Shown: piece after piece, positions 4,105-14,400 of the stretch
How positions within the stretch are numbered: the first letter of the stretch is position 1
Layout: each line of letters begins with the position of its first letter
Assembly (NCBI GenBank): GCA_900316955.1
Contig: ONEX01000002.1
Span: forward strand, 1 to 64,000
Reading direction: 5' to 3'
DNA: 64,000 nt
DNA from: an uncultured Bacteroidales bacterium
GTDB taxonomy: Bacteria > Bacteroidota > Bacteroidia > Bacteroidales > UBA932
Program-made: the position numbers and the translations under genes
The notes under the pieces: generated by a model
Databases searched by the model: none
Told to the model about the DNA's origin: nothing
Seen by the model: only the letters and a program-made list of their open reading frames with translations

Positions 4105-5130
4105 ATGGCCGCTTTTTCCGCACGCAGGGTCAAGAATTACGACCTCTATTCCGGCCACGCCTGGTACGTGCCCGGCGTCAAGGGGATGTTCGGCTTCATC
4201 GGCTGGTTCATCCTGGGCGCCCTGCTGGGCGGCATCGTCCAGCTCGTCATGGGCCTGTTCATGTCCCAGCAAGCCATCCTGGACTACGGCCAGATCGTCA
4301 TCTATCCCATCCAGTTCCTCCCCGCCATGGTCTATGCGGCGAACCAGAGCCGCAGGAACATGATCTTCGATCCGGGCTATGTGCTGGACAACAAGCATTT
4401 CGAGCCTTACGGCCTGGTCATGCTGGTCCTCGTCACCGTGCTGATGACCATCGCCTCGATGTTCGTCTTCGACCTGCCCAACTACTGGAACTTCCAGCTG
4501 ACAAACAAGTCGTCCATCCTGGCCCAGTTCTATGAGATGTTCACCGAGCTGATGAAACAGATGACCGGCGGTCCGCTCTGGGCCTCCTTCCTCACAGTGG
4601 CCATCTTCGCCCCGATCTTCGAGGAATGGATGTGCCGGGGCATGGTGCTCCGCGGCCTGCTGACGAAGATGAAGCCCGCCTGGGCCATCGTCCTCTCCGC
4701 CCTCTTCTTCGCCGTCATCCACATGAACCCCTGGCAGGCACTGAACGCCTTCCTGATCGGCCTGGTGATGGGCTATGTCTATTACAAGACCGGCTCCCTG
4801 ATCCTCACGATGGTCATCCATTTCGTGAACAACGGCACCTCCGTCATCCTCTCCCACATCGAGAAGTTCAAGGACTATGAGGATCTCTACTGGGTCGAAA
4901 TCATGGACAAGTCCACCTATGCGATCCTCTTCGCGGTCTCCTGCATCGTCCTCGCCGCCTGCCTCTGGGCCTTCTCCCGCATCAAGGTCGAGAACCCCTG
5001 GGGCAACATCGACCGCATCCCGCCCGCCGACGAGACCGTGGCGCCGGTCACCCAGGAGATGCCCACGGACGAAGCTCCCGCCTCCGAGGAGCTCCCCGCC
5101 GACGAAGATCCCGCCGTCCCTGCGGAGTAG
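4105..5130 (+). CDS. CPBP-family intramembrane glutamic endopeptidase
   Basis: A 341-residue multipass membrane protein of the CPBP/ABI (Rce1-like) family. The catalytic signature EEWMCRG (EExxxR) is at about 173-179, FFAVIH (FxxxH) around 198-203, and a further conserved histidine lies in MVIHFVNNGTS. The C-terminal 40 residues form a soluble acidic, proline-rich tail. The start chosen is ATG 4105, one base after the upstream stop; the longer open frame overlaps the upstream gene and adds residues that do not look membrane-bound. Substrates of bacterial CPBP proteins are mostly unknown. A terminator hairpin and a hairpin array follow. Confidence 0.85.
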   Translation: MAAFSARRVKNYDLYSGHAWYVPGVKGMFGFIGWFILGALLGGIVQLVMGLFMSQQAILDYGQIVIYPIQFLPAMVYAANQSRRNMIFDPGYVLDNKHFEPYGLVMLVLVTVLMTIASMFVFDLPNYWNFQLTNKSSILAQFYEMFTELMKQMTGGPLWASFLTVAIFAPIFEEWMCRGMVLRGLLTKMKPAWAIVLSALFFAVIHMNPWQALNAFLIGLVMGYVYYKTGSLILTMVIHFVNNGTSVILSHIEKFKDYEDLYWVEIMDKSTYAILFAVSCIVLAACLWAFSRIKVENPWGNIDRIPPADETVAPVTQEMPTDEAPASEELPADEDPAVPAE

Positions 5131-5141
5131 CTTTCGTAATC

Positions 5142-5160
5142 CGCTGTTTTTCAGCGTTTT
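5142..5160 (+). terminator. Terminator after the CPBP gene
   Basis: A 5-bp stem, CGCTG (5142-5146) with CAGCG (5152-5156), has a T5 loop and is followed directly by TTTT. It lies 11 bases after the CPBP stop codon. Confidence 0.6.
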
Positions 5161-5323
5161 AACATCAAAGAGGTGCACTTGGTTGTGCACCTCTTTGATG
5201 TTAATTTATTGACAATCAATCAAATAACGCTATAGAGGTGCACGACAGGGTGCACCTCTTAAACGTTAATATAGTGATACTCAATCGAATGATGATACAG
5301 AGGTGCACGGCCAGGTGCACCTC
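5161..5323. repeat. Tandem array of three hairpins with a 65-bp period
   Basis: Three hairpins share the core GAGGTGCAC...GTGCACCTC and each has a 6-base loop. Hairpin 1 has a perfect 18-bp stem (5161-5178 with 5185-5202), hairpin 2 a 10-bp stem (5234-5243 with 5250-5259) and hairpin 3 a 9-bp stem (5300-5308 with 5315-5323). The core AGAGGTGCAC recurs exactly every 65 bp (5169, 5234, 5299). The AT-rich linkers are related to each other (both carry a TCAATC-AAT segment). The stems are conserved while the loops differ. The array fills the gap between two convergent genes, so part of it may also stop transcription from both sides. Confidence 0.85.
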
Positions 5324-5345
5324 AACATACCCTTAAGGCTGATTA

Positions 5346-6158
5346 TCAACCGTTTAGAATTGTAGCGCACGTGGCTTCCGCTTCGGAAAGCGTGTCAAAC
5401 TTGCCCACGTCTACGAGGGTGAAGTCCGGCGGGACGGCGGCGTAGATGGGATAATCTGCGCAGGCGCGAAGGTAAAAGTCCACGATGGAGAAGCGATCGC
5501 CGAAGCCATACTTGTCGAAGGCATCAAAAATGGCCGGCGAAATCAGATGGATGCCGGCGAAGGCGAGTTTGCGGCAACCATCCGGGTCGATGTCTCCGAA
5601 CGGACTCCGCACCTCTCCTGTTGCGATATTCGTCCATCCCTTCAGCCGGTTGTCCTCATCGAACAGGAAATACCGCTGTGTCTTCCGATCGCTAACCACC
5701 AGTGTCGCCAATGCCCCCTCCCGGTGCTGCTCCCGCAGCCAGTCGAGGTCCAGATTGCTGACAATGTCCACGTTGTGGACGAGGAAGGGTTCCATTGTCA
5801 TTCCGAGCGGAGCGAAGGAATCTCTTTCTGTCATTTCGAGCGGAGCCGCAGGCGGAGTCGAGAAATCTGTCAGCAGGCGCTTCGCATAGCGGATCCCCCC
5901 ACCCGTCTCCCGCAGGAAGTCCCGCTCGTCGGAAACGGCGATGCGGACACCGAAGTCGTGGGAATGGAGGTAGTGGATAATCTGATCCGGGAAATGATGA
6001 ACATTCACAACAAGGTCGTCATACCCCGCCGCCACGAGCTTGGTAATGACATGGTACAGCAGCGGCTGGCCGCACACGGGCACGAGCGCCTTCGGCATCG
6101 TGTCCGTGATGGGTTTCAGGCGGGTCCCCAGCCCCGCGGCAAAGATCATCGCTTTCAT
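5346..6158 (-). CDS. MurU-like N-acetylmuramate-1-phosphate uridylyltransferase
   Basis: A 270-residue nucleotidyltransferase with the N-terminal signature FAAGLGTRLKPIT (residues 6-18), a KALVPV segment, and NVDIVSNLD as the metal-binding region. The family includes MurU, which makes UDP-MurNAc from MurNAc-1-phosphate in peptidoglycan recycling. The next gene upstream (6262-7848) encodes an AmgK-like kinase, the step before MurU, which supports this reading. Residues 97-121 are not family sequence: they are the translation of a repeat element at 5796-5868 that stays in frame. A general mannose-1-phosphate guanylyltransferase-like role is the alternative. Confidence 0.8.
   Translation of the reverse strand: MKAMIFAAGLGTRLKPITDTMPKALVPVCGQPLLYHVITKLVAAGYDDLVVNVHHFPDQIIHYLHSHDFGVRIAVSDERDFLRETGGGIRYAKRLLTDFSTPPAAPLEMTERDSFAPLGMTMEPFLVHNVDIVSNLDLDWLREQHREGALATLVVSDRKTQRYFLFDEDNRLKGWTNIATGEVRSPFGDIDPDGCRKLAFAGIHLISPAIFDAFDKYGFGDRFSIVDFYLRACADYPIYAAVPPDFTLVDVGKFDTLSEAEATCATILNG
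5796..5868. repeat. Palindromic element lying in frame inside the murU-like gene
   Basis: Two adjacent stem-loop units read, on the coding strand, AGATTTCTCGA...TCGAAATGACA and AGATTCCTTCG...CGGAATGACA. Both are members of the AGATT-stem-loop-AATGAC family also seen at 14401, 49778 and 52337. Together they encode about 25 residues (DFSTPPAAPLEMTERDSFAP and onward) that interrupt the nucleotidyltransferase fold between the GGGIRYAKRLL and FLVHNVDI segments. The reading frame is kept. Confidence 0.8.
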
Positions 6159-6189
6159 CGTCTGACGGCCGTCGAATGGAACTTGTTTA

Positions 6190-6261
6190 TTATCAATACC
6201 TTACGCAATGATGAGTGCTCCGTTTTGCGCACTCGAGTATCGTTAAGTTAATCACTGTCAA
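6190..6261. other. Intergenic hairpin between the amgK-rapZ and murU-like genes
   Basis: The roughly 100-base gap between the two leftward genes is AT-rich compared with its neighbours. It holds a hairpin with GAGTGC at 6213-6218 pairing with GCACTC at 6229-6234, flanked by imperfectly complementary sequence. TATCAAT and GTCAATCA segments on its sides resemble those beside the hairpins at 5161-5323 and in the 106-bp elements, so it may be a diverged member of the same repeat group. No good promoter was seen for the murU-like gene here, so co-transcription with the upstream gene is plausible. Confidence 0.4.
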
Positions 6262-7848
6262 TCACTTACATTCGACGCACTCTTCGGGTAACCAGCATTC
6301 TATGCCCCGCTCGCGGTGGATGAGGTGCACTTTCACGGGATATTTCGCGGCGAGGTGCTCGGCGAGGTGCTGGGCGCTGTAGGCGGAGCGGTGCTGGCCG
6401 CCGGTGCAGCCGAAGCTGACCTGCAGGTGCGTGAAGCCGCGCTGGAGGAAGCGCTCCACGTGCGCATCGACCAGGGCATAGACATGGTCCAGGAAGCGGA
6501 GGATCTCGCCGTCCTCCTCCAGGAACCGGATGACGGGTTCATCCAGGCCGGTCAATTGCTTGAACCGCTCGTACTTCCCCGGATTATGCACGCTCCGGCA
6601 GTCGAACACATACCCTCCCCCATTCCCGGACGTATCCTCGGGAATTCCCTTTCGGAAGGAAAAACTGTATACGGTGACCGTCAAGGCGGAGCTTGAGTCG
6701 GAGGGTGTGTTATTTCCTGAACCTGTGGCCACCCTCGGCCGAACCACCCCAAAAATCGGCAGATTTTCGGGGGCCCCGGATGCCAACCCTTCGAGGGGCC
6801 CGCCGCTTGCGGTGGGAGGGACGGAGCAATCTTCGATTGCGGAGGGTTCAGGAAATAATACACCCTCCGACAGAGGCGGAGCCGACAACCCTGACAAAAC
6901 TTCACTGAGGTAGGGATAGTCGTTGAACGGCAGGAGGGAGTTGACGATGGCGAGGGCCGGGGGGATGCTGGAGGAGAAGGCTTTGTTGCCTTCCCAGAGG
7001 CCGCGGTAGCCGTAGCAGCCGAGGACCTGGAGCATCCGGAAGAGGATGAAGAGGCGGAGGCGCTGCCGGAAATGGGCCTCGTCCACGGGGCCATAGGCTC
7101 GAAGGGCGTCCAGATAGACCTGCAGCAGTTCTTCGCGCAGGGCTTCCGGGTATTTGGCGCGCGCCTGCCAGAGGAAAGAGGCCACGTCGTAATAGACGGG
7201 GCCGCGGCGGCCACCCTGGAAGTCGATGAAATAGGGTTCGCCGTCCACCAGCATCACGTTCCGGGCGTTGAAGTCCCGGTACAGGAAGGTGTCGGAAGGT
7301 TCGGCCAGGAGGTCCGCCTTCAGGCGGTCGAAGTCGTCCTGCAGGAGGACTTCGTTGAACTCCACGCCGACGAGCTTCAGGAAGTCGTACTTGAAATAGT
7401 TCAGGTCGAAGTCCACCATCCGGGCGTCGAAGGACGGCTGCGGATAGCAGACCGAGAAATCCAGCCCGCGGGCACCCTCGACCTGGATCTTCGGGAGGGC
7501 GGCGAGGGTCTTGCGCAGGAGCGCGACCTCGCCGGGGCTGTAGTTCCCCGAGGCGCGGCCGGCGGCGAGCGCGTCGTACAGGACGGTCGTGCCCAGGTCC
7601 TCCTGCAGGTAGCAGAGGCCATCGACAGCGACCACCTTCGGGACGTTGATTCCCTGGGCGGCGAAGTGACGGTCGAGGGCGAGGAAGGCGCGGTTCTCGT
7701 CGGCGTCGGTGCCTTCCACGCCGATGAGCGTCCGCCCGTCGGCCCCCGTCAGGCGGTAGTACCGCCGGTGCGAGGCCGACCCGGTGAGCGCCACGCTGGC
7801 GACGGGCGCCGCCCCGGTATACTGTTCGAACAAGGATTCAAGTGACAT
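6262..7848 (-). CDS. AmgK-like aminoglycoside-phosphotransferase-fold kinase fused to a RapZ C-terminal domain
   Basis: A two-domain protein of 528 residues. Residues 1 to about 325 are an APH-fold kinase with the catalytic-loop motif LYRDFNARNVML (about 187-199) and the metal-binding IDFQGG that follows. This matches AmgK, which phosphorylates the anomeric position of MurNAc or GlcNAc. Residues about 385-528 resemble the C-terminal domain of RapZ/YvcJ (VFDCRSVHNPG, FGCTGGQHRS, HRE), which in RapZ binds glucosamine-6-phosphate and RNA. The kinase-RapZ fusion followed by a MurU-like gene suggests an amino-sugar recycling unit that can sense its own metabolite; this is inference. Residues about 327-384 are encoded by a repeat element with 26-bp inverted ends. 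Without it the protein would be about 470 residues. A TAATTTTG box at 7853-7860 (minus) precedes the start. Confidence 0.85.
   Translation of the reverse strand: MSLESLFEQYTGAAPVASVALTGSASHRRYYRLTGADGRTLIGVEGTDADENRAFLALDRHFAAQGINVPKVVAVDGLCYLQEDLGTTVLYDALAAGRASGNYSPGEVALLRKTLAALPKIQVEGARGLDFSVCYPQPSFDARMVDFDLNYFKYDFLKLVGVEFNEVLLQDDFDRLKADLLAEPSDTFLYRDFNARNVMLVDGEPYFIDFQGGRRGPVYYDVASFLWQARAKYPEALREELLQVYLDALRAYGPVDEAHFRQRLRLFILFRMLQVLGCYGYRGLWEGNKAFSSSIPPALAIVNSLLPFNDYPYLSEVLSGLSAPPLSEGVLFPEPSAIEDCSVPPTASGGPLEGLASGAPENLPIFGVVRPRVATGSGNNTPSDSSSALTVTVYSFSFRKGIPEDTSGNGGGYVFDCRSVHNPGKYERFKQLTGLDEPVIRFLEEDGEILRFLDHVYALVDAHVERFLQRGFTHLQVSFGCTGGQHRSAYSAQHLAEHLAAKYPVKVHLIHRERGIECWLPEECVECK
6698..6870. 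repeat. 173-bp MITE-like element with 26-bp terminal inverted repeats inside the kinase-RapZ linker
   Basis: The left end (6698-6723) and right end (6845-6870) are reverse complements at 25 of 26 positions. Further small hairpins lie inside: GCAATC-TTC-GATTGC just before the right arm, and a CCCC-AAAATC / GATTTT-GGGG stem. The open frame passes through the whole element, which encodes about 58 residues rich in P, G and S with no similarity to kinase or RapZ. Length and inverted ends suggest a non-autonomous mobile element. No transposase with matching ends is seen in this window. Confidence 0.85.
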
Positions 7849-7852
7849 ATTG

Positions 7853-7876
7853 CAAAATTAATTATTCTTATCTTTG
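7853..7876. promoter_or_regulatory. Divergent -7 boxes for amgK-rapZ and the phytase-like gene
   Basis: TAATTTTG reads leftward at 7853-7860, just before the kinase start. TATCTTTG followed by C reads rightward at 7869-7876, 15 bases before the phytase-like ATG. Both match the Bacteroidota -7 element TAnnTTTG. Confidence 0.6.
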
Positions 7877-7891
7877 CAAGCAAATGACGGT

Positions 7892-9301
7892 ATGATGAAA
7901 AGGATTCTGCTCAGCCTCCTCCTAGCAAGCTTCACGGCGCTCAGCTGCGCGGCGCAGCCGAAGGGGAAAGTGGTGAACGAACCGGTCCGGTTCAAGGACG
8001 GGACGGCCGTGAGCGGGGATGCGGAGGCCGAAGCGCTGTTCGCGCAGGACCGCTTCGTGACCGACACGACGGTGACGGAGAAGGGCGATACGCTCTTCAC
8101 GGTCCGGCATGCCAGCGCCTATGTCCGGATGCAGGTCGACGGCTTCCCGGAGGGCATCGACCAGTTGCTGCTGGTGCCCACGCAGGGCGCCATACAGACC
8201 CTTCCGGTGACGGGAACGGGGCCGATGGTCCTGTGGATGGCGAAGGAGCCGGGCGGTCTCCCGGCGGCGGCAGCCGTCGCCGAGGCGCCGGACGGCCGCC
8301 TCTGGTCGGCCCGCCTCCCCGCCCTGGACCTGCAGCCCGGCACCGCGTACCGATGGACCGGAACCCTCCTTCCGCCGGAAGCGCCCGCTTCGGGCCTCCG
8401 GGCCACGCCCCTGCCCGCCACGCTCCTGGACATCGACCCCGGCGAGTACTCCGGCATCGCCTGGCTCGGTGGGAACCAGTTTGCGGTCGTGGACGACAAC
8501 CTCAAGGGCGGCGGCATCCTCCGGTTCGCCATTCCCATCGACGAGTACGGCAACGTCGGCACGGTCCTGCGGCAGGTCGCGCCCGGAACGGCGGCCGCCG
8601 ACGGCAAGAAGCGGGACACCGAGGGCATCGCCTTCGTCCCCTCCGAGAGCCGCCTGTATGTCACGTCCGAGAAACACCAGGAGATCCACGCTTACGACCT
8701 CAACGGAAACGACGCCGGCATCAGCCTGCAGGTCCCGCAAGACTTGAAGGCCATCGTGGACAACCAGGGCTTCGAGGCCCTCACCTACAACGAGACGACC
8801 GGCCTGTTCTGGACCACGACGGAATCGTCCCTCAAGGCCGATACCTTCCTCCCGAGAATCCTCCGCCTGCAAAGCTTCGACCGCGAAGGGAAGCCCGCCG
8901 GACGCTATTTCTACCAGACCGGAGAGCCCTCGCAAACCAGCAAGAACACCGTCGCCTACGTCTTCGGCGTCCCGGCGCTCGCGGCCCTGGACGACGGCCG
9001 CGTCCTTGTGCTGGAGCGGGAAGTCTATGTGCCCAAGGGAACCCTCTGGGAGAAGCTGCAGGGCGCTTTCACGGACATCCACATCTATGTGGTGGACCCG
9101 GTCAACGATACCGCCGGTCTTCTCCGGAAATCCCTCCTGTGCACCTTCACCACCGGCGCCCTCAACCTCGCCAATTTCGAAGGCATGTGCCTCGGCCCCG
9201 TCCTCCCGGACGGCCGGCGCACGCTCGTCCTCATCGCCGACTCCCAGAAGGGCTCCGGCGGCCTGACGAACGAGTACGTGAAAGTGATTCTTTTCCGGTA
9301 A
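7892..9301 (+). CDS. Secreted esterase-like phytase-family protein
   Basis: A 469-residue exported protein. The N-terminus MMKRILLSLLLASFTALSC is a signal peptide and may be a lipoprotein signal (cysteine after TALS). From about residue 170 the protein matches the esterase-like-activity-of-phytase domain: GEYSGIAWLGGNQFAVVDDN, TEGIAFVPSESRLYVTSE and FEALTYNETTGLFWTTTES are repeats of a beta-propeller-like fold. The N-terminal 150 residues are less typical. The start is the first ATG of ATGATGAAA; the frame is open a little further upstream without a better start. The natural substrate is unknown (a phosphate ester or phytate is inferred from the family name). It is followed by pncB, which has its own promoter. 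Confidence 0.75.
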   Translation: MMKRILLSLLLASFTALSCAAQPKGKVVNEPVRFKDGTAVSGDAEAEALFAQDRFVTDTTVTEKGDTLFTVRHASAYVRMQVDGFPEGIDQLLLVPTQGAIQTLPVTGTGPMVLWMAKEPGGLPAAAAVAEAPDGRLWSARLPALDLQPGTAYRWTGTLLPPEAPASGLRATPLPATLLDIDPGEYSGIAWLGGNQFAVVDDNLKGGGILRFAIPIDEYGNVGTVLRQVAPGTAAADGKKRDTEGIAFVPSESRLYVTSEKHQEIHAYDLNGNDAGISLQVPQDLKAIVDNQGFEALTYNETTGLFWTTTESSLKADTFLPRILRLQSFDREGKPAGRYFYQTGEPSQTSKNTVAYVFGVPALAALDDGRVLVLEREVYVPKGTLWEKLQGAFTDIHIYVVDPVNDTAGLLRKSLLCTFTTGALNLANFEGMCLGPVLPDGRRTLVLIADSQKGSGGLTNEYVKVILFR

Positions 9302-9321
9302 CACCCTATCGGTTTTTTTCA

Positions 9322-9359
9322 TATCTTTGTAGATAACGCCATCGGCGGCATCTACAAAG
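9322..9359 (+). promoter_or_regulatory. pncB promoter overlapped by a palindromic operator-like site
   Basis: The -7 box TATCTTTG is at 9322-9329. It overlaps the left arm of a perfect 10-bp inverted repeat, CTTTGTAGAT (9325-9334) with ATCTACAAAG (9350-9359), enclosing an inner CGCC-atc-GGCG palindrome (9337-9347). The left arm reaches into the promoter, so the site looks more like a repressor operator than an RNA hairpin. NAD-synthesis genes in other bacteria are controlled by repressors such as NrtR or NiaR; which regulator acts here is unknown. Confidence 0.6.
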
Positions 9360-9369
9360 AAAAAAAATC

Positions 9370-10878
9370 ATGGACAAACTGAACACTGCCTATTGCTCCG
9401 ACAAGTACCAGTACACGATGGGAAAGTCGTACCTGGAATGCGGAAAGGACAAGGAAATCGCCACTTTCAACCTGTTTTACCGGAAGGCTCCGGAGAACAA
9501 CAACTGGGCCGTCGTCAGCGGCACGGAGGAAGTCATCCAGATGGTCCAGAAGCTGGGCACGGAGCCGGAGGAATTCTATGAGAAGTTCCTCCCCGGGGAC
9601 GACTACAAGGAGTTCCGCAAGTATCTGAGCACCATGAAGTTCACCGGCGCGGTGTACTGCATGCGCGAGGGCGAGATCGCCTTCCCCACGCAGCCCATTG
9701 TCACCGTCGTCGCGCCCATGATCGAGGCCCAGGTCCTGGAGACCCCGATGCTGTGCATCCTGAACCACCAGATGGCCGTCGCGACCAAGGCCTCCCGCGT
9801 GTGCCGCGCCACGGACAAGCCGGTGTCGGAGTTCGGTTCCCGGCGGGCGCACGGCCCCTGGGCCGCCGTGTATGGCGGCAAGGCCGCGCAGATCGCCGGC
9901 TGCGCCTCCTCCTCCAACATCCTCACCGGCGCGATGAACAATGTCCCCTCCACGGGCACGATGGCCCACAGCTTCGTGACCGCCTACGGCAGCACCGTCG
10001 AGGGCGAGCACCAGGCCTTCTGCGACTACATCCGCACGCACCGGGGCGAGAACATCATCCTCCTCATCGACACGTACGACACCCTCAAGTGCGGTGTCAA
10101 GAACGCCATCCGCGCTTTCCGCGAGAACGGCATCGACGACAGCTATCCCGGTGGCTACGGCGTCCGGCTGGACAGCGGCGACCTCGCGTACCTGTCGCAG
10201 GAAGTCCGCACCATCCTGGACGAGCACGGCCTCCGCAAGTGCAAGATCTTCGCGACCAACAGCCTGGACGAATACCTGATCACGGACCTGGAGCGCCAGG
10301 GCGCCTGCATCGACAGTTACGGCGTGGGCGACGCCATCGCCACCTCCAAGGCCGCCCCGTGCTTCGGCAACGTGTACAAGCTCGTGCAGATCGGCGACCA
10401 GCCCGTCCTCAAGCGCTCCGAGGACAAGATCAAGCTCATCAATCCGGGCTTCCAGATCACCTGGCGCATCAGCGCCCTGGACTCCTCCAAGGGCAACAAG
10501 ATCGACGGCTACGTGTTCAAGGCCGATGTCACCTGCCTCCGCGGCGACAAGATGGACCTCGCCATCCAGAAGGGCGAGACCATCACCGTCCGGGACGAGT
10601 ACGACTCCTTCAAGTACAAGACCTTCGAGGCCGGCACCTACGAGGCCCGTCCGCTCCAGCACCAGGCCATCGCGAACGGCAAGCGCGTGTGCCCGCAGCA
10701 CACCCTGCTGCAGAAGAAGGTCTTCTTCAAGGACAACCTGCACCACTTCTCGCCCGCCGAGTCCCGCCTCATCAACCCGCACTACTACAAGGTGGACATC
10801 TCCGACGACCTCTACGACACCAAGATGCGCCTGATCGACGACCTCGTGAAGCAGATCCAGGCCTTTGAGATCGACTAG
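9370..10878 (+). CDS. pncB: Nicotinate phosphoribosyltransferase
   Basis: Converts nicotinate and PRPP to nicotinate mononucleotide in the Preiss-Handler NAD salvage route. The 502-residue sequence carries the family hallmarks: an N-terminal TAYCSDKYQYTMGKSYLE segment that begins the fold, the phosphoribosyl-binding EFGSRRAHGPWAA region around residue 153, and the LIDTYDTLKCGVKNAI and GVRLDSGDLAYLS motifs of the C-terminal barrel. The promoter carries a palindromic operator-like site. A strong terminator follows. The other salvage gene, pncA, lies 2.9 kb downstream, beyond the RAYT and its repeats. Confidence 0.93.
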   Translation: MDKLNTAYCSDKYQYTMGKSYLECGKDKEIATFNLFYRKAPENNNWAVVSGTEEVIQMVQKLGTEPEEFYEKFLPGDDYKEFRKYLSTMKFTGAVYCMREGEIAFPTQPIVTVVAPMIEAQVLETPMLCILNHQMAVATKASRVCRATDKPVSEFGSRRAHGPWAAVYGGKAAQIAGCASSSNILTGAMNNVPSTGTMAHSFVTAYGSTVEGEHQAFCDYIRTHRGENIILLIDTYDTLKCGVKNAIRAFRENGIDDSYPGGYGVRLDSGDLAYLSQEVRTILDEHGLRKCKIFATNSLDEYLITDLERQGACIDSYGVGDAIATSKAAPCFGNVYKLVQIGDQPVLKRSEDKIKLINPGFQITWRISALDSSKGNKIDGYVFKADVTCLRGDKMDLAIQKGETITVRDEYDSFKYKTFEAGTYEARPLQHQAIANGKRVCPQHTLLQKKVFFKDNLHHFSPAESRLINPHYYKVDISDDLYDTKMRLIDDLVKQIQAFEID

Positions 10879-10902
10879 CGTCTCTCACCTCGGCCCCCTT
10901 CG

Positions 10903-10938
10903 CGCCATCCGCCCCCCGGCCCGGATGGCGTTTTCTTT
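10903..10938 (+). terminator. Terminator after pncB
   Basis: A 9-bp GC-rich stem, CGCCATCCG (10903-10911) with CGGATGGCG (10922-10930), is followed by TTTTCTTT. The T-tract is at the same time the left end of the 106-bp repeat A, so the element abuts or was inserted at the terminator tail. Confidence 0.85.
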
Positions 10939-11035
10939 ATCCACCTGGTTATCAGCCGCTTCCATGATCCGCTTTATGTAAAAACGCACAAAGCAGTATT
11001 TGGAAAAAGCTGTATATCAGTCAGATAAGGAAAAC
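10930..11035. repeat. 106-bp symmetric palindromic element, copy A
   Basis: The element is built as 41 bases, an 8-bp stem, an 8-base loop, an 8-bp stem and 41 bases. The central hairpin at 10971-10994 is GCTTTATG, loop TAAAAACG, then CACAAAGC with one mismatch. The outermost bases are complementary (GTTTTCTTTATC at the left, GATAAGGAAAAC at the right). Copies B (12483-12588) and C (13645-13750) have the same length and the hairpin at the same offset. The loop sequence gives the orientation: A and C agree, B is inverted. Confidence 0.9.
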
Positions 11036-11048
11036 ACGAAACCGCACG

Positions 11049-11062
11049 ATTCTTGCAAGAAT
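11049..11062. promoter_or_regulatory. Perfect 14-bp palindrome upstream of the 459-residue gene
   Basis: ATTCTTGCAAGAAT is fully self-complementary and lies 23 bases before the ATG at 11086, between the end of repeat A and the gene. It could be a regulator site or a chance palindrome. No matching -7 box was found beside it. Confidence 0.3.
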
Positions 11063-11085
11063 GGCAAGTGTTTTACGTACGCGAT

Positions 11086-12465
11086 ATGAAGCACACCATC
11101 CTTCTCCTTTCCACCCTGCTCTGCGTCCTTCCGCTCCAGGCGCAGCGGGTGCGGAACAAGCCGTTCGATGTCACTTTGCATGATTACACCATCGATGAAG
11201 TCGTCCAGCTGTTCGGGAAACCGGTACAGATCGATTCCGGACTGATTGATGGTGGTCTGGCGGTCGAGTATCCGCATGCCCATTTTTACTATTTTGCCGT
11301 CTGGAACAACACTCCTCAGGAGGGCCCCTGGGGAGAGCCGGACTACTATGCCTCGGATGGTTTCAGTACCGATTCTCCCGATTTCTGCTTTTACTCGGAC
11401 TGCTTTCCGGGCGGCATCCGCGTCGGTGACCGGATCGAACGGATCCGGAAACTGGACATCGTCCATTCGAGGGTGGGCAAAGGAAGGCCGGAGAACGCGC
11501 TCCGGAAGATGGACTGGAAAACCGAGAACGACCATTTTGAGATCCTGGGGGTCGAATATGACCATTTCTATCTGGAAGTGAAGGACAGCGTGGTCTGTTC
11601 CATCGACTGGGACACGCCAATCGACTGGGACCGGCTGAGCGGCGGGTTCCTATGGAAGGTCGAGGCTGACGACCTTCCTTCGCCGTCCTATCTGCTGGGC
11701 ATATTCCCGGGTGCGCCGGCGAGCGCACTGCAACGGATTACCGGGCTGGACAAGGCCTGGGATGCCGTGAAGGCCGTATATTGGCAGGATCCGGAGTTGG
11801 GTCCCTGGGGCGGGACGATGACGGAGGAAATGTTCCTCCGGGATGGGAAGAAACTGGAAGACCTCTACCGGCGGGAGGACTACAGTGATATCCAGGATTA
11901 TGTCAAGCAATTGACCGGATTCCGTCCGGAAGAACTCTGGTGGTCGCCCGACGGGCTCACCCGTTTCCTGATGAACCGACTGGTAAAGCAGACGATGGCT
12001 GAATATGCCGATGGGAAACCCGACATGGGCGCCACCCTCTATAACAGGGCAGTAGCGGAAGGAAAGGAAGTCCATGTCCTGGGATCCGCTTTCCATATAG
12101 AATCCTCCCGCACTCCCGGGGTTATGGAGGAGGACGAGAAGGAACTGCTCCAATTGGTCCGGGATCCTGGTGGAAAGCCCGAAGCCATCCAAGCGGACAT
12201 CCGACACCTGTATGATGCCTATCTGACTGAGAATCAAGATGAGGTGGGGTATTTCCTGTACTATGCCAAGAAGTATTCACCCCTCCGGACGAACGCTGCC
12301 AACAACTGTAATTATCACTGGGATAAGGAACTCAAACAGGCGATGCGGAAGGGTCCGGCCCTTGTCATCGTCGATTTCACAGACATGGCGACCCTGCGCG
12401 AGTTGCTGGGGGATTTCGCTTTTTGGGAAGGATTCCGCATCGAGCCCCTGACAGTCCGCAAGTAA
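11086..12465 (+). CDS. Secreted protein of unknown function, C-terminal half faintly TraB/GumN-like
   Basis: A 459-residue protein with a clear signal peptide (MKHTILLLSTLLCVLPLQAQ). I do not recognise the N-terminal half. The C-terminal part has features reminiscent of TraB/GumN-type proteins: a TLYNRAVAEGKEVHVLGS segment and the closing pattern NYHWDKELKQAM, then a hydrophobic strand and GFRIEPL. The usual GxxH motif is not evident, so the match is weak. The ATG at 11086 is preferred over the upstream TTG at 11053 because it puts the signal peptide at the N-terminus. The gene sits exactly between two inverted 106-bp elements (A and B) and is less GC-biased than its flanks, which suggests it came with the repeat block. 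Confidence 0.55.
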   Translation: MKHTILLLSTLLCVLPLQAQRVRNKPFDVTLHDYTIDEVVQLFGKPVQIDSGLIDGGLAVEYPHAHFYYFAVWNNTPQEGPWGEPDYYASDGFSTDSPDFCFYSDCFPGGIRVGDRIERIRKLDIVHSRVGKGRPENALRKMDWKTENDHFEILGVEYDHFYLEVKDSVVCSIDWDTPIDWDRLSGGFLWKVEADDLPSPSYLLGIFPGAPASALQRITGLDKAWDAVKAVYWQDPELGPWGGTMTEEMFLRDGKKLEDLYRREDYSDIQDYVKQLTGFRPEELWWSPDGLTRFLMNRLVKQTMAEYADGKPDMGATLYNRAVAEGKEVHVLGSAFHIESSRTPGVMEEDEKELLQLVRDPGGKPEAIQADIRHLYDAYLTENQDEVGYFLYYAKKYSPLRTNAANNCNYHWDKELKQAMRKGPALVIVDFTDMATLRELLGDFAFWEGFRIEPLTVRK

Positions 12466-12482
12466 TCCTCATTGGCCTAGGT

Positions 12483-12588
12483 GTTTTCCTTATCTCATTG
12501 ACATTCAGCATATTCCGCAATCTGCTTTGCGCGTTTTTACGCAAAGCGGGTTATGGAAGGTACTGTGTATCAACCAAATAAAGAAAAC
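12483..12588. repeat. 106-bp symmetric palindromic element, copy B (inverted)
   Basis: The architecture is the same as copies A and C. The central hairpin at 12524-12547 is GCTTTGCG, loop CGTTTTTA, then CGCAAAGC, a perfect 8-bp stem. The loop is the reverse complement of the A and C loop. The reverse complement of B also aligns better with A along the flanks (for example CTTCCAT beside the core), so B is an inverted copy. It starts 17 bases after the stop of the 459-residue gene. Confidence 0.9.
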
Positions 12589-12691
12589 GCTCAAATGAGT
12601 TGACGCAACCTCTTATCGGCAAATTCATTTGCAAATCCCGCCGTCTTTAACGATCTTTAAGGCGGATTCCGCAGTGGAGTCCGTTCATCAT

Positions 12692-12698
12692 AAGGAGG
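12692..12698 (+). promoter_or_regulatory. Strong Shine-Dalgarno site of the RAYT gene
   Basis: AAGGAGG lies 7 bases before the ATG at 12706 and fixes the start. Such a strong site is unusual here; most genes in this window have none. The 117 bases between repeat B and the gene also hold a GCAAAT-tc-ATTTGC palindrome at 12619-12632, and no clear -7 box was found. Confidence 0.65.
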
Positions 12699-12705
12699 GT
12701 CCGGT

Positions 12706-13638
12706 ATGAAGAGTCGGAAAAGACGGTTCGCCTATGTAGGAACCGAGCACATTTACAAGAATACGAAAGACGGCGGGCTGCTGTTCTACACGCTCAGCGA
12801 CTACCTGGTCTATTTCACCATTACATGTGTGGCCGCAGAGAAGAAGGGTATCACGCTGGCGGCATTGACCCTGATGCGGGATCATGTCCATGAGGAGTTG
12901 GAGGTCCATCATCCACAGGTCATGGCCGAATATGAGCAGCTGGTCAACGCCTGGTACGCCCAGGAGTTCAACCGCTCCTGCGGCCGGGAAGGACAGTTGT
13001 TCAACCACCCATACGGAAACGCGCCCAAGCGCACGGAAAGCCGGATTCGGGATTCGTTCGCCTATCTGGGCAACAATCCCGTGGAACGGAAACTGTGCCG
13101 CAAGGCCATCGACTATCGATGGAACTTCCTGGCCTATGCCCATAATCCACATCCTTTTTCCCAGCCCCTCGTGATTCGGAAGGCATCCGCTCCGCTCAAG
13201 CGGGCCGTCAATCTGGTGAAGGCCTGCCATAAACAAAGAAACATCTTGAATTACAGAGTATTGGAACGAATGTTCCGGACGCTCGAAAAAGAGGAAGTCC
13301 AGCAATTGACCGATTTTATCATATCGACATACAACGTCATCGATTACGAAGCAGCCGCCTCCTGGTACGGTTCGTTCGACAAAATGATCGCCGCCTTCGA
13401 TGTCAATACCGGTTCAGAGTACGACATGCGGGAAACCTTCGTCGGCAAGGACGATTCCGTCTATGCGCAGATTGCCACCCGCATTCTCGATCATTGGAAT
13501 CCGAAATCCATCAAGGAAGTGATTGTCTGGCCGGATGAGCAGAAACTGGATGCGCTGGATACCCTCGCCAGAGAAACGGTCATCCCTTTCCCGCAAATCG
13601 CCAAATTCCTGCATATGAAAGTCAAGAAAGAGCGCTGA
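12706..13638 (+). CDS. REP-associated tyrosine transposase-like protein (RAYT, Y1/HUH family)
   Basis: A 310-residue protein whose first 150 residues carry the hallmarks of RAYT/IS200-like Y1 transposases. The HUH histidines are in LMRDHVHEELEV (H60, H62). The segment YLGNNPVERKLCRKAIDYRW contains the presumed catalytic tyrosine Y120 followed by the NPV and DYRW signatures. RAYTs are single-copy domesticated relatives of IS200 transposases that act on REP palindromes. This gene sits between 106-bp palindromes B and C (C begins 6 bases after its stop), the arrangement expected for a RAYT and its substrates. The C-terminal 150 residues are an extension absent from short enterobacterial RAYTs and may be a DNA-binding region (KSIKEVIVWPDEQKLDAL and onward). 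The first histidine motif differs from the usual NHVH, having DHVH. A strong Shine-Dalgarno site supports the start. Confidence 0.82.
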   Translation: MKSRKRRFAYVGTEHIYKNTKDGGLLFYTLSDYLVYFTITCVAAEKKGITLAALTLMRDHVHEELEVHHPQVMAEYEQLVNAWYAQEFNRSCGREGQLFNHPYGNAPKRTESRIRDSFAYLGNNPVERKLCRKAIDYRWNFLAYAHNPHPFSQPLVIRKASAPLKRAVNLVKACHKQRNILNYRVLERMFRTLEKEEVQQLTDFIISTYNVIDYEAAASWYGSFDKMIAAFDVNTGSEYDMRETFVGKDDSVYAQIATRILDHWNPKSIKEVIVWPDEQKLDALDTLARETVIPFPQIAKFLHMKVKKER

Positions 13639-13644
13639 CGATGC

Positions 13645-13750
13645 GTTTTTGCCAAATCGTTATCCCTCAATCAGATACAGAAGCCGCTTTATGTAAAAAC
13701 GCATAAAGCGCAGAATAGAACCGATTATCAATCAACAGGATAAAGAAAAC
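13645..13750. repeat. 106-bp symmetric palindromic element, copy C
   Basis: The central hairpin at 13686-13709 is GCTTTATG, loop TAAAAACG, then CATAAAGC, a perfect 8-bp stem at offset 41 as in A and B. The right end GATAAAGAAAAC is well conserved; the left end is degenerate (GTTTTTGCC). Orientation is the same as copy A. It lies between the RAYT stop and the pncA promoter. Confidence 0.88.
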
Positions 13751-13785
13751 GGCGGAGGAAGCGAAGGATTGTCGGAGAAATTGCG

Positions 13786-13793
13786 TATTTTTG
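13786..13793 (+). promoter_or_regulatory. -7 box of pncA
   Basis: TATTTTTG matches TAnnTTTG and lies 7 bases before the pncA ATG, so the leader is very short. No palindrome like the one at pncB is seen here. Confidence 0.55.
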
Positions 13794-13800
13794 TACAGCT

Positions 13801-14400
13801 ATGCAAAAGAAACTGAAAGACAGCGCACTGGTGGTCGTGGACATGCTCTACGACTTCATCGACGGGAGCATGGCGTGCCAGGGGGCCGAAGGGGCCATCG
13901 AGGGCACGCTGAAGGCCATCGACCGGCTCACCGCCGGGACGGACGCCGACGAGACGGGCGTCGTTTCCACCTACCCGATCCTCTTCATCCGGGACCATCA
14001 TCCCGCGGACCACTGCTCGTTCGCCGCGCAGGGCGGTCCCTGGCCGCCGCATTGTGTCCAGGGCACCCATGGGGCCGATGTCCATGAGTCCCTCCTCCCC
14101 TACGTGAAGGAGGACCTGACCTTCTTCAAGGGCGAGGATCCGACCAAGGAGCAGTATAGCGGCTTCGAGGGCGTGAATGCCGCCGGGCAGAGCCTCGCCG
14201 AGGTCCTGAAGCTCCTGGACATCAAGAACGTCCTCGTGTGCGGCATCGCCACGGAATACTGCGTCCGCAACACCGCGGAGGACCTCCTGAAGGACGGTTT
14301 TGCGGTCTATGTCCTGAAAGATGCCCTTGCCTGGGTCGATGCTGCCGGCCATGTGGAGGCGCTGAAGGCGATGGAGAACGAAGGGATTCATCTAATCTAG
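13801..14400 (+). CDS. pncA: Nicotinamidase (isochorismatase-like cysteine hydrolase)
   Basis: Deamidates nicotinamide to nicotinate, the substrate of PncB. The catalytic triad can be placed as D14 (VVVDMLYDF), K110 (TFFKGED) and C154 (GIATEYCVRNTA). Metal-binding residues fit D65, H67 and H71 in RDHHPADHCSF. The PHCVQGT motif near 83-89 is typical of nicotinamidases rather than other isochorismatases. Length (199 residues) is normal. It has its own promoter right after repeat C. With pncB at 9370-10878 it completes nicotinamide-to-NaMN salvage. A palindromic element lies in the gap to the helicase gene. Confidence 0.92.
   Translation: MQKKLKDSALVVVDMLYDFIDGSMACQGAEGAIEGTLKAIDRLTAGTDADETGVVSTYPILFIRDHHPADHCSFAAQGGPWPPHCVQGTHGADVHESLLPYVKEDLTFFKGEDPTKEQYSGFEGVNAAGQSLAEVLKLLDIKNVLVCGIATEYCVRNTAEDLLKDGFAVYVLKDALAWVDAAGHVEALKAMENEGIHLI

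What the first reader, a model, noticed from the sequence alone, without database searches (positions are those of the whole stretch)
10930..13750. RAYT transposase flanked by three exact-length 106-bp palindromes (one inverted)
Seen: three copies of a palindrome at 10930-11035, 12483-12588 and 13645-13750. All are 106 bp, with an 8-8-8 central hairpin at offset 41 and complementary outer ends (GTTTTCTTTATC / GATAAAGAAAAC). Copy B is inverted: its loop is the reverse complement of the A and C loop. A gene with RAYT hallmarks (HVH at 60-62; YLGNNPV with Y120) lies between B and C. Known: RAYT proteins process REP/BIME palindromes, mostly described in Enterobacteria and Pseudomonas. Inference: this is a self-consistent REP-RAYT system of a Bacteroidales, with an unusually long, strictly symmetric element and a long C-terminal extension on the RAYT. 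It is the best candidate for an under-described system in the window.
Basis: partly seen in the sequence, partly recalled or inferred. Interest (0 to 1): 0.78.

Follow-up and report, generated by a model that had tools for sequence, protein, structure and literature searches.

The report
Transposase-like enzyme with matched palindromic DNA elements
A gut bacterium carries a gene for a likely DNA-nicking enzyme flanked by 108-base mirror-image DNA elements that match it; related bacteria carry many such gene-element pairs, each with its own code, so this looks like an undescribed branch of a known family of small domesticated mobile DNA systems.

Summary
Three ~106-bp palindromes (A, B, C) surround a gene with conserved HUH and Tyr residues. 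The repeating unit is 108 bp. A and B are good palindromes; C is eroded on its left side.

It is not a one-off. Of 94 homologous loci, 79 have at least one such element beside the gene and 50 one on each side; shuffled flanks gave none. The elements share one layout: variable terminal inverted repeats, a fixed motif TAA-CTGATnATCAG-TTA, and a variable central hairpin. Ends and hairpin differ between genes but match across each gene (own partner first in 48 of 50). In 121 genus genomes, 66 of 67 with the gene have elements, against 21 of 54 without. Elements are dispersed and differ in presence between close relatives, with no clear target-site duplication.

Best reading: a REP/RAYT-type system. 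The long (~310 aa) proteins split from 14 short Bacteroidota RAYTs on a well-supported branch and match none of the published subclasses I read. Most ends lack the REP tag GT[AG]G. Mobilisation by the enzyme is inferred, not shown. The idea that elements drive gene inversions failed its control. Verdict: new variant of a known kind.

The parts
10929..11036 (+). element A, family 1, 108-bp palindrome (terminal inverted repeat CGTTTTC, hairpin GCTTTATG)
   Evidence: 66.0 bits, E 1.6e-9; A was one of the 31 rows of the model
12482..12589 (-). element B, family 1, in inverted orientation relative to A and C
   Evidence: 85.1 bits, E 2.5e-13; B was one of the 31 rows of the model
13644..13751 (+). 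element C, family 1, left arm degraded
   Evidence: 54.7 bits on the minus strand, E 2.9e-7; not in the model
12706..13638 (+). long RAYT / TnpAREP-like HUH-Y1 protein, 310 aa
12883..12891 (+). HUH motif H60-V61-H62 (both His the same in 96 of 96 rows)
13063..13065 (+). catalytic Tyr candidate Y120 (same in 96 of 96 rows), in YLGNNP
13162..13635 (+). C-terminal extension, residues 153-310, conserved in the subfamily (L193, E197, Q200, D203, Y209, D213, G236, E238, E243), no consistent Pfam domain
11089..12465 (+). TraB/PrgY/gumN-family gene lying between A and B; found in 1 of 121 sampled genus genomes (this one): possible passenger
6170..6277 (+). solo element of family 2 (ends CGTCGAATG), whose RAYT lies on contig C20 of the same genome
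5128..5235 (+). solo element of family 4 (hairpin AGAGGTGCAC); none of the three RAYTs of this genome has elements of this kind beside it
5258..5365 (+). second solo element of family 4

Best explanation
The gene encodes a RAYT-type (TnpAREP-like) HUH-Y1 single-strand DNA nuclease/strand transferase of a long subfamily, so far seen only in one Bacteroidales family. The 108-bp palindromes are its cognate non-autonomous elements. SHOWN by sequence: a fixed element layout, gene-specific ends and central hairpin that vary together with the gene, several separate specificities per genome, dispersal to other loci, presence/absence differences between close relatives, and no clear target-site duplication. 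INFERRED: when an element is single-stranded (lagging strand or excised strand) its terminal repeats pair and the centre forms a hairpin; the enzyme reads the end and the hairpin, nicks at the ends with Y120, and transfers the strand to another, mostly intergenic, site. INFERRED more weakly: the HUH core reads the ends and the C-terminal extension helps to read the hairpin. Because the element is a palindrome with a foot at both ends, either DNA strand could serve as substrate, unlike a canonical REP. Genes may be lost while their elements persist, leaving orphan elements.
For: H60, H62, K108, Y120, N124 and W139 the same in 96 of 96 rows, 94 distinct loci. NCBIfam REP_Tyr_transpos hit by 66 of 68 and Pfam Y1_Tnp by 58 of 68 members at E<=0.01. 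Profile hits in the PDB are IS200-type transposases (best E 0.0012) and E. coli TnpAREP 4er8, weak at E 0.095. Elements upstream in 70 of 92 and downstream in 59 of 93 loci; shuffles 0 of 92 and 0 of 93; flanks 950-1400 bases away 4 of 83 and 1 of 87. Own downstream element ranks first in 48 of 50. All 24 pairs of the named structure show changes on both sides; covariation score 0.809 against 0.207 shuffled and at most 0.200 slid (rows hand-picked from palindromes, so inflated). Elements in 66 of 67 genomes with the gene and 21 of 54 without (Fisher p 2.7e-14). The own genome has two more long RAYTs, 42% and 36% identical to the query, each with its own elements. 28 elements in 1.16 Mb of the own genome, 22 of them not directly beside a RAYT. 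Presence/absence at the tested sites. Element ends track the core better than the extension (partial rank correlation 0.30 against 0.10, 79 loci).
Against: No transposition, cleavage or binding was observed. No clean empty site showing exactly 108 bp gained was found. 21 of 54 genomes without a detected gene have elements (incomplete genomes, decayed or diverged genes, or another mobiliser are possible). 15 of 94 loci had no called element (some of these, such as L017, L044, L112, L119 and L125, show one by eye). Pairing statistics rest on elements preselected for palindromy. The canonical GT[AG]G guide is at only 20 of 86 ends. 2-bp matches of the two flanks are slightly in excess (19 of 147 against 12.4 shuffled), so a 2-bp duplication is not excluded. 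The fold could not be predicted.
Confidence: 0.72

Rival explanations
1. The elements act as the ends of larger cassettes: the enzyme moves element-gene-element units (A-TraB-B, B-RAYT-C), so neighbouring genes are cargo.
For: The TraB-like gene between A and B is found in 1 of 121 genus genomes. The whole A-TraB-B-RAYT-C stretch is absent in three relatives. In UBA3289 and G291 pncB sits between elements in other orders and orientations, with breakpoints in or at elements.
Against: 22 of 28 elements in the sampled part of the own genome are not directly beside a RAYT. 64 of 74 locus pairs with homologous flanks and RAYTs at least 55% identical are collinear. No second copy of a cassette was seen, though none was searched for beyond the RAYT and TraB-like proteins.
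Confidence: 0.12
2. The elements are regulatory DNA, for example bidirectional transcription terminators or binding sites through which the protein regulates its own gene, and are not mobile.
For: The centre is a strong hairpin flanked by conserved A and T tracts; T runs of 4 or more follow the stem on 19% of strands against 4% shuffled. Three of the 11 terminator-like sites in 5000-14000 overlap elements (5159-5204, 13685-13710, 12516-12531). The flanking position is fairly constant.
Against: 11 terminator-like sites is no more than the shuffles give (9.5, sd 3.3). Only 15 of 119 elements have T runs on both strands. Dispersed solo copies, presence/absence turnover and matched terminal repeats need another reason. 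In the alignment 255 of 742 cells change on both sides and 26 on one side only, as expected of DNA rather than RNA pairing, though preselection adds to this.
Confidence: 0.1
3. The elements are sites of gene inversion run by the enzyme.
For: 10 of 74 RAYT locus pairs (RAYTs at least 55% identical) show an inverted flank or block, and pncB is inverted between elements in this locus.
Against: 29 control loci around pncB, none with a RAYT hit, rearrange more often: 65 of 107 pairs are not simply collinear. Only one clear element (score 60.0) lies in those loci, with three more weak hits of 12.7-16.8 at threshold 12.
Confidence: 0.04
4. A structured RNA made from the elements (small RNA or guide) is the functional product.
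For: Stable hairpin, covariation.
Against: No credible Rfam match in window 5000-14000: the single hit up to E 0.1 is the microRNA model MIR530 at 31.1 bits against a gathering score of 85. Few one-sided changes. Palindromy covers both strands alike.
Confidence: 0.03

Closest known systems
REP/RAYT (TnpAREP) REPtrons, e.g. E. coli and Stenotrophomonas (PMC6006769, sections 11, 12, 15 part 1 and passages; PMC8266576, abstract and passages)
   Same: HUH-Y1 enzyme with Y---NP motif, low copy, diverged paralogues, each flanked by its own palindromic family with dispersed copies.
   Different: Canonical REPs are 20-40 bp with a 5' GT[AG]G tag; here 108 bp, two feet, fixed inner motif, mostly no GT[AG]G. 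The enzyme is ~310 aa with a conserved C-terminal extension.
RAYT subclass 2.6 (Bertels group 5), Bacteroidetes (PMC6006769)
   Same: Bacteroidetes; flanked by 'atypical secondary structures' with copies elsewhere in the genome.
   Different: Median 179 aa, NH[LIV]H, WQ, YIH[QN]NP; here 310 aa, mostly DH-H, W-N, Y--NNP. Its structures are not described in the text I read (they are in figures and supplements), so kinship of the elements cannot be excluded.
RAYT subclass 2.4 with 'double foot' REPs (PMC6006769)
   Same: REPs with a foot at both ends; occurs in Bacteroidetes; Y--NNP motif.
   Different: Feet are GT[AG]G / C[TC]AC; protein about 194 aa with a variable insertion; no large C-terminal domain is listed.
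RAYT subclass 2.3 (PMC6006769)
   Same: Similar length (median 325 aa) with a long C-terminal tail.
   Different: NHYH, WE, YVDLNP, two insertions in the core, Chromatiales and Alteromonadales, no flanking REP-like structures found.
TIRYT / TIRtrons (mostly subclass 2.1; PMC3733652 and PMC6006769, passages)
   Same: RAYT-like genes with a C-terminal extension flanked by inverted repeats that can form small dispersed families.
   Different: Extensions there are HTH/DnaA-like (1 of 68 members here has an HTH_23 hit); most of the inverted repeats carry GGGGWSAS.
REPINs / BIMEs (definition in a passage of PMC6006769; length of about 100 bp recalled)
   Same: Symmetrical non-autonomous units thought to be moved by a RAYT.
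   Different: A REPIN is two REP hairpins; here there is one central hairpin and paired ends, and the halves hold a conserved motif.

Membership tests
RAYT / TnpAREP (HUH-Y1) | HUH motif | tested here: met
   H60 and H62 in 96 of 96 rows
RAYT / TnpAREP (HUH-Y1) | Y---NP tyrosine motif of class 2 | tested here: met
   Y120 and N124 in 96 of 96 rows, P125 in 89%
RAYT / TnpAREP (HUH-Y1) | Curated family model reached | tested here: inconclusive
   NF047646 27.8 bits against cut-off 80 for the window protein; 66 of 68 members match at E<=0.01, best 8.6e-18; Pfam Y1_Tnp 16.6 bits against 23
RAYT / TnpAREP (HUH-Y1) | Low copy, diverged copies (not an IS) | tested here: met
   Three copies in the genome, the other two 42% and 36% identical to the query
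RAYT / TnpAREP (HUH-Y1) | Flanked by its own dispersed palindromic family | tested here: met
RAYT / TnpAREP (HUH-Y1) | Single-strand cleavage and transfer of cognate palindrome | not testable with these tools
   needs purified protein
Canonical REP sequence | GT[AG]G tag at the foot | tested here: not met
   20 of 86 ends of 43 elements
Canonical REP sequence | 20-40 nt length | tested here: not met
   unit is 108 bp
RAYT subclass 2.6 | NH[LIV]H, WQ, YIH[QN]NP, about 179 aa | tested here: not met
   DHVH, WN, YLGNNP, 310 aa; consensus of 68 agrees; single members differ, e.g. NHLH in L048
RAYT subclass 2.4 | GT[AG]G double-foot REPs, about 194 aa, variable insertion between HUH and Tyr | tested here: not met
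   GT[AG]G at 20 of 86 ends, 310 aa; the insertion itself was not compared
TIRYT | HTH/DnaA-like C-terminal domain | tested here: not met
   at E<=0.01 HTH_23 in 1 of 68 and no DnaA hit
IS200/IS605 | Near-identical multiple copies | tested here: not met
   own genome, 98.46% complete
IS200/IS605 | tnpB partner | not tested
   not searched
HUH fold | Three-dimensional HUH fold | not testable with these tools

The most novel reading that the evidence does not exclude
This is a two-point, modular address system: the HUH core reads the terminal foot and a new C-terminal domain reads the central hairpin, so each genome runs several mutually exclusive populations of symmetric elements that can be processed on either DNA strand. 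Specificities are gained, diverge quickly and leave orphan populations, giving a natural library of dozens of enzyme-address pairs.
Probability: 0.35. Interest if true: 0.75.

Novelty: new variant of a known kind. Interest (0 to 1): 0.62.

Why it matters
RAYTs are among the best-known domesticated bacterial transposases, yet how they choose and spread their palindromes is unresolved. Here dozens of naturally diverged enzyme-element pairs share one fixed element layout, so which residues read which bases becomes directly testable by swapping ends, hairpins and domains. It also accounts for a class of intergenic palindromes in these mostly uncultured Bacteroidales genomes: 87 of 121 genomes of the genus have a match to the element model.

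Tried and rejected
Inversion hypothesis: the three-species comparison of this locus and 10 of 74 RAYT locus pairs with RAYTs at least 55% identical (seven more distant pairs were also not collinear and are not in the 74) suggested element-driven inversion. The control with 29 pncB loci, none with a RAYT hit, gave 65 of 107 non-collinear pairs, so I dropped it. The divergence of the two sets was not matched and pairs are not independent, so this shows only that inversion is common without elements.

Precise excision: G350, G301 and G353 lack A-TraB-B-RAYT-C, but their pncB-pncA junction also lacks about 50 bp of spacer on each side, so it is not a clean empty site. Related copies in G291 and UBA3289 make loss in those relatives as likely as gain here.

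Terminator reading: weak support. RNA reading: no credible Rfam family in window 5000-14000. Phage or plasmid origin: one viral scan found no relative, one plasmid scan a single weak hit at 24.3% identity. Target-site duplication: none of 3-5 bp beyond chance; 2-bp matches 19 of 147 against 12.4. Shared target motif outside the element: none clear except in the small TTGGC group (15 arms), whose ends may be longer. Same elements beside short RAYTs: the caller gives 11 hits of 12 or more in 5 of 14 such loci, but five shuffles of these loci give 7-11 hits in 3-5 of 14, and none reaches 27, so they are chance.

Rows dropped: of the matches listed, 60 were fetched, partial and most low-scoring ones left out. 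L046 and L047 duplicate L016 and L020 and were left out of the 94 loci. One search left out 47 odd-length elements and members beyond two per cluster (43 kept of 119). For the model, 28 of these 43 were picked by hand as the better framed ones, with three window elements (31 rows); this raises the pairing scores. In the genus scan 32 candidates per genome were scored, both strands counted, so copy numbers there are lower bounds. Genes are crude ORFs; 17 of 28 elements overlap them by 30 bp or less, so 'mostly intergenic' is approximate.

Not held: Bertels et al. 2017, known to me only through PMC6006769. Also looked at in passages, without use: PMC12306157 and PMC11194056.
Full report
OBSERVATION. 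Self-complementary positions are 64, 70 and 50 of 106. In most groups of elements similarity stops at 54 bases from the centre, so the unit is 108 bp. A and B are sound imperfect palindromes; C has lost the symmetry of its left arm. The B loop is the reverse complement of the A and C loop. A plain palindrome scan puts A (21.2) and B (24.6) above ten shuffled pieces (at most 16.0) and above the other pieces of the window (at most 19.6), save one that proved to be another element.

THE PROTEIN. The gene 12706-13638 encodes 310 aa. It falls below the curated cut-offs of Pfam Y1_Tnp and NCBIfam REP_Tyr_transpos, but of 68 diverse homologues 58 and 66 respectively match these models at E<=0.01. In 96 aligned rows (94 distinct loci) H60, H62, K108, Y120, N124 and W139 are the same throughout (subset A2). 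Against the PDB a profile finds IS200-type transposases (E 0.0012) and weakly E. coli TnpAREP 4er8 (E 0.095). The last ~155 residues are conserved in the subfamily but match no domain consistently. On a core-only tree 42 long proteins are split from 14 short Bacteroidota RAYTs by one branch with 100/100 support, although the bootstrap as a whole had not quite settled. In 395 genomes of the phylum only the own genome has full-length matches at E<=1e-20; 11 others match the core alone; few of the 395 listed come from the own order, so the limits of the group are rough. In 299 genomes of the family 88 have a homologue at E<=1e-10, some of them core-only. A pattern-based scan of named genomes gave four loci, all titled Bacteroidales or Bacteroidia. 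Many of the 14 short-RAYT loci show shorter palindromes of another type; caller hits there are at the level of shuffles.

EACH GENE HAS ITS OWN ELEMENTS. The own genome has three long RAYTs; the other two are 42% and 36% identical to the window protein. Each is flanked by palindromes with its own hairpin and, for two of them, its own terminal repeats; the third family has weak ends. Over 94 loci from 50 clusters, a caller trained on other clusters finds an element upstream in 70 of 92 and downstream in 59 of 93; 50 loci have both and 79 at least one. Shuffled flanks gave 0 of 92 and 0 of 93. Flanks 950-1400 bases away gave 4 of 83 and 1 of 87; some hits in a similar control are true elements by eye. 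At the 50 loci with both, the terminal repeats of the two elements agree at 0.74 of positions and the hairpins at 0.86, against 0.39 and 0.30 for other clusters; the own partner ranks first in 48 of 50; in the other two, 3 and 22 foreign elements score at least as high.

THE ELEMENT. Pooling 216 arms gives a fixed ruler: variable terminal repeat at -54 to -46, TAA near -44, CTGATTATCAG at -38 to -28, TTA at -23 to -21, AAA at -17 to -15, then a variable hairpin. Left-right covariation is strong in the terminal block and the hairpin and weak between. On 31 aligned elements all 24 pairs have changes on both sides; the covariation score is 0.809 against 0.207 in shuffles and at most 0.200 when slid. 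These elements had been chosen for palindromy, and the 31 by hand among those, so the size of the effect is inflated; the two-block pattern was not imposed. GT[AG]G stands at 20 of 86 ends. There is no clear target-site duplication.

DISTRIBUTION. A covariance model finds elements in 87 of 121 genomes of the genus; 67 of the same 121 have the gene. Of the 67, 66 have elements (the exception, G330, has a match with one stop inside), and so do 21 of the 54 without the gene (list comparison; Fisher p 2.7e-14). In 1,159,416 bases (37%) of the own genome the caller gives 28 elements at score 27 or more, and 46 against 2 in shuffles at 12 or more. By eye they fall into about six specificities, of which three have a RAYT here. 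Family 4 (AGAGGTGCAC) resembles the elements of a G291 RAYT and family 5 (ACTCCCTGG) those of a G263 RAYT, so some look like orphans.

TURNOVER. Against G350, G301 and G353, close relatives: the A-to-C block is absent in all three. The family 2 element at 6170-6277 is in G350 and absent in G301 and G353. Of the two family 4 elements G301 has one, and none was called in the G350 or G353 stretches. A family 1 solo element on C20 is absent in these three, with what reads as a short remnant in G291. No long RAYT was found in G350 (95% complete), which still has elements. In G291 and UBA3289 the related RAYT (78-79% identical) sits in the same neighbourhood with pncB moved or inverted and breakpoints in or at elements. 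While its neighbours are 92-95% identical between those two, the RAYT is 75% identical at DNA level, so gene and elements diverge fast.

CO-EVOLUTION. Over 79 loci element similarity falls with RAYT identity. Ends track the core (partial rank correlation 0.30) better than the extension (0.10); the hairpin tracks both about equally (0.14 and 0.16). This is a hint for who reads what, no more.

MECHANISM. Known from papers: E. coli TnpAREP cleaves single-stranded REP, not its complement, at CT dinucleotides, and GTAG is crucial for this; in a Marinomonas enzyme GTAG acts as a guide for the cleavage site (PMC8266576, passages read). Inferred here: the long enzymes act likewise on 108-bp units whose two feet replace GTAG by a gene-specific end. 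As both strands carry a foot and the hairpin, either strand could be a substrate. No step of this chemistry was tested.

KNOWN OR NEW. PMC6006769 (outline, sections 11, 12 and 15 part 1, and passages) tabulates the subclasses; none in that table combines about 310 aa, DH-H, W-N and Y--NNP. Its subclass 2.6, also of Bacteroidetes, is flanked by 'atypical secondary structures' not described in the text I read, which is the nearest published hint. TIRYTs (PMC3733652, passages) are near in having a C-terminal extension. Nine searches of the library showed, in the listed rows, no paper on this subfamily or its elements; several listings were cut to the best rows, Bertels 2017 was not held, and most subscription papers are not in the library. 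I file it as a new variant of the RAYT kind.

Noticed in passing
window 5128-5235 and 5258-5365: Two neighbouring elements of a specificity (hairpin AGAGGTGCAC) that none of the three RAYTs of the own genome has beside it; a G291 RAYT (L090) has matching elements.
   Followed up: partly
window 6170-6277: Solo family 2 element between a MurU-like gene (5346-6158) and a gene joining an AmgK/APH-like kinase to a RapZ C-terminal domain (6262-7848); it overlaps the 3' end of the latter.
   Followed up: yes
window 11089-12465: TraB/PrgY/gumN-family gene between elements A and B, with no relative at E<=1e-20 in 120 other sampled genomes of the genus.
   Followed up: partly
window 10900-10945: The left end of A continues a GC-rich hairpin downstream of pncB into a T-rich stretch, so the element end looks fused to a possible terminator (read, not tested).
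   Followed up: no
L007 728-785 and 1729-1810: Two other short repeats (about 58 and 80 bp); the first has many dispersed copies in all four relatives searched, the second several partial ones, most in G301; nature unknown.
   Followed up: no
G324, G287, G350: Genomes with many element matches but no long RAYT detected; lost genes or a different mobiliser.
   Followed up: no
pncB loci L130-L158: Gene order around pncB is very unstable within the genus (65 of 107 pairs not simply collinear), with no RAYT and one clear element in the 29 loci.
   Followed up: partly
window 6262-7848: Fusion of a kinase domain (APH, AmgK-like) with the RapZ C-terminal domain.
   Followed up: no
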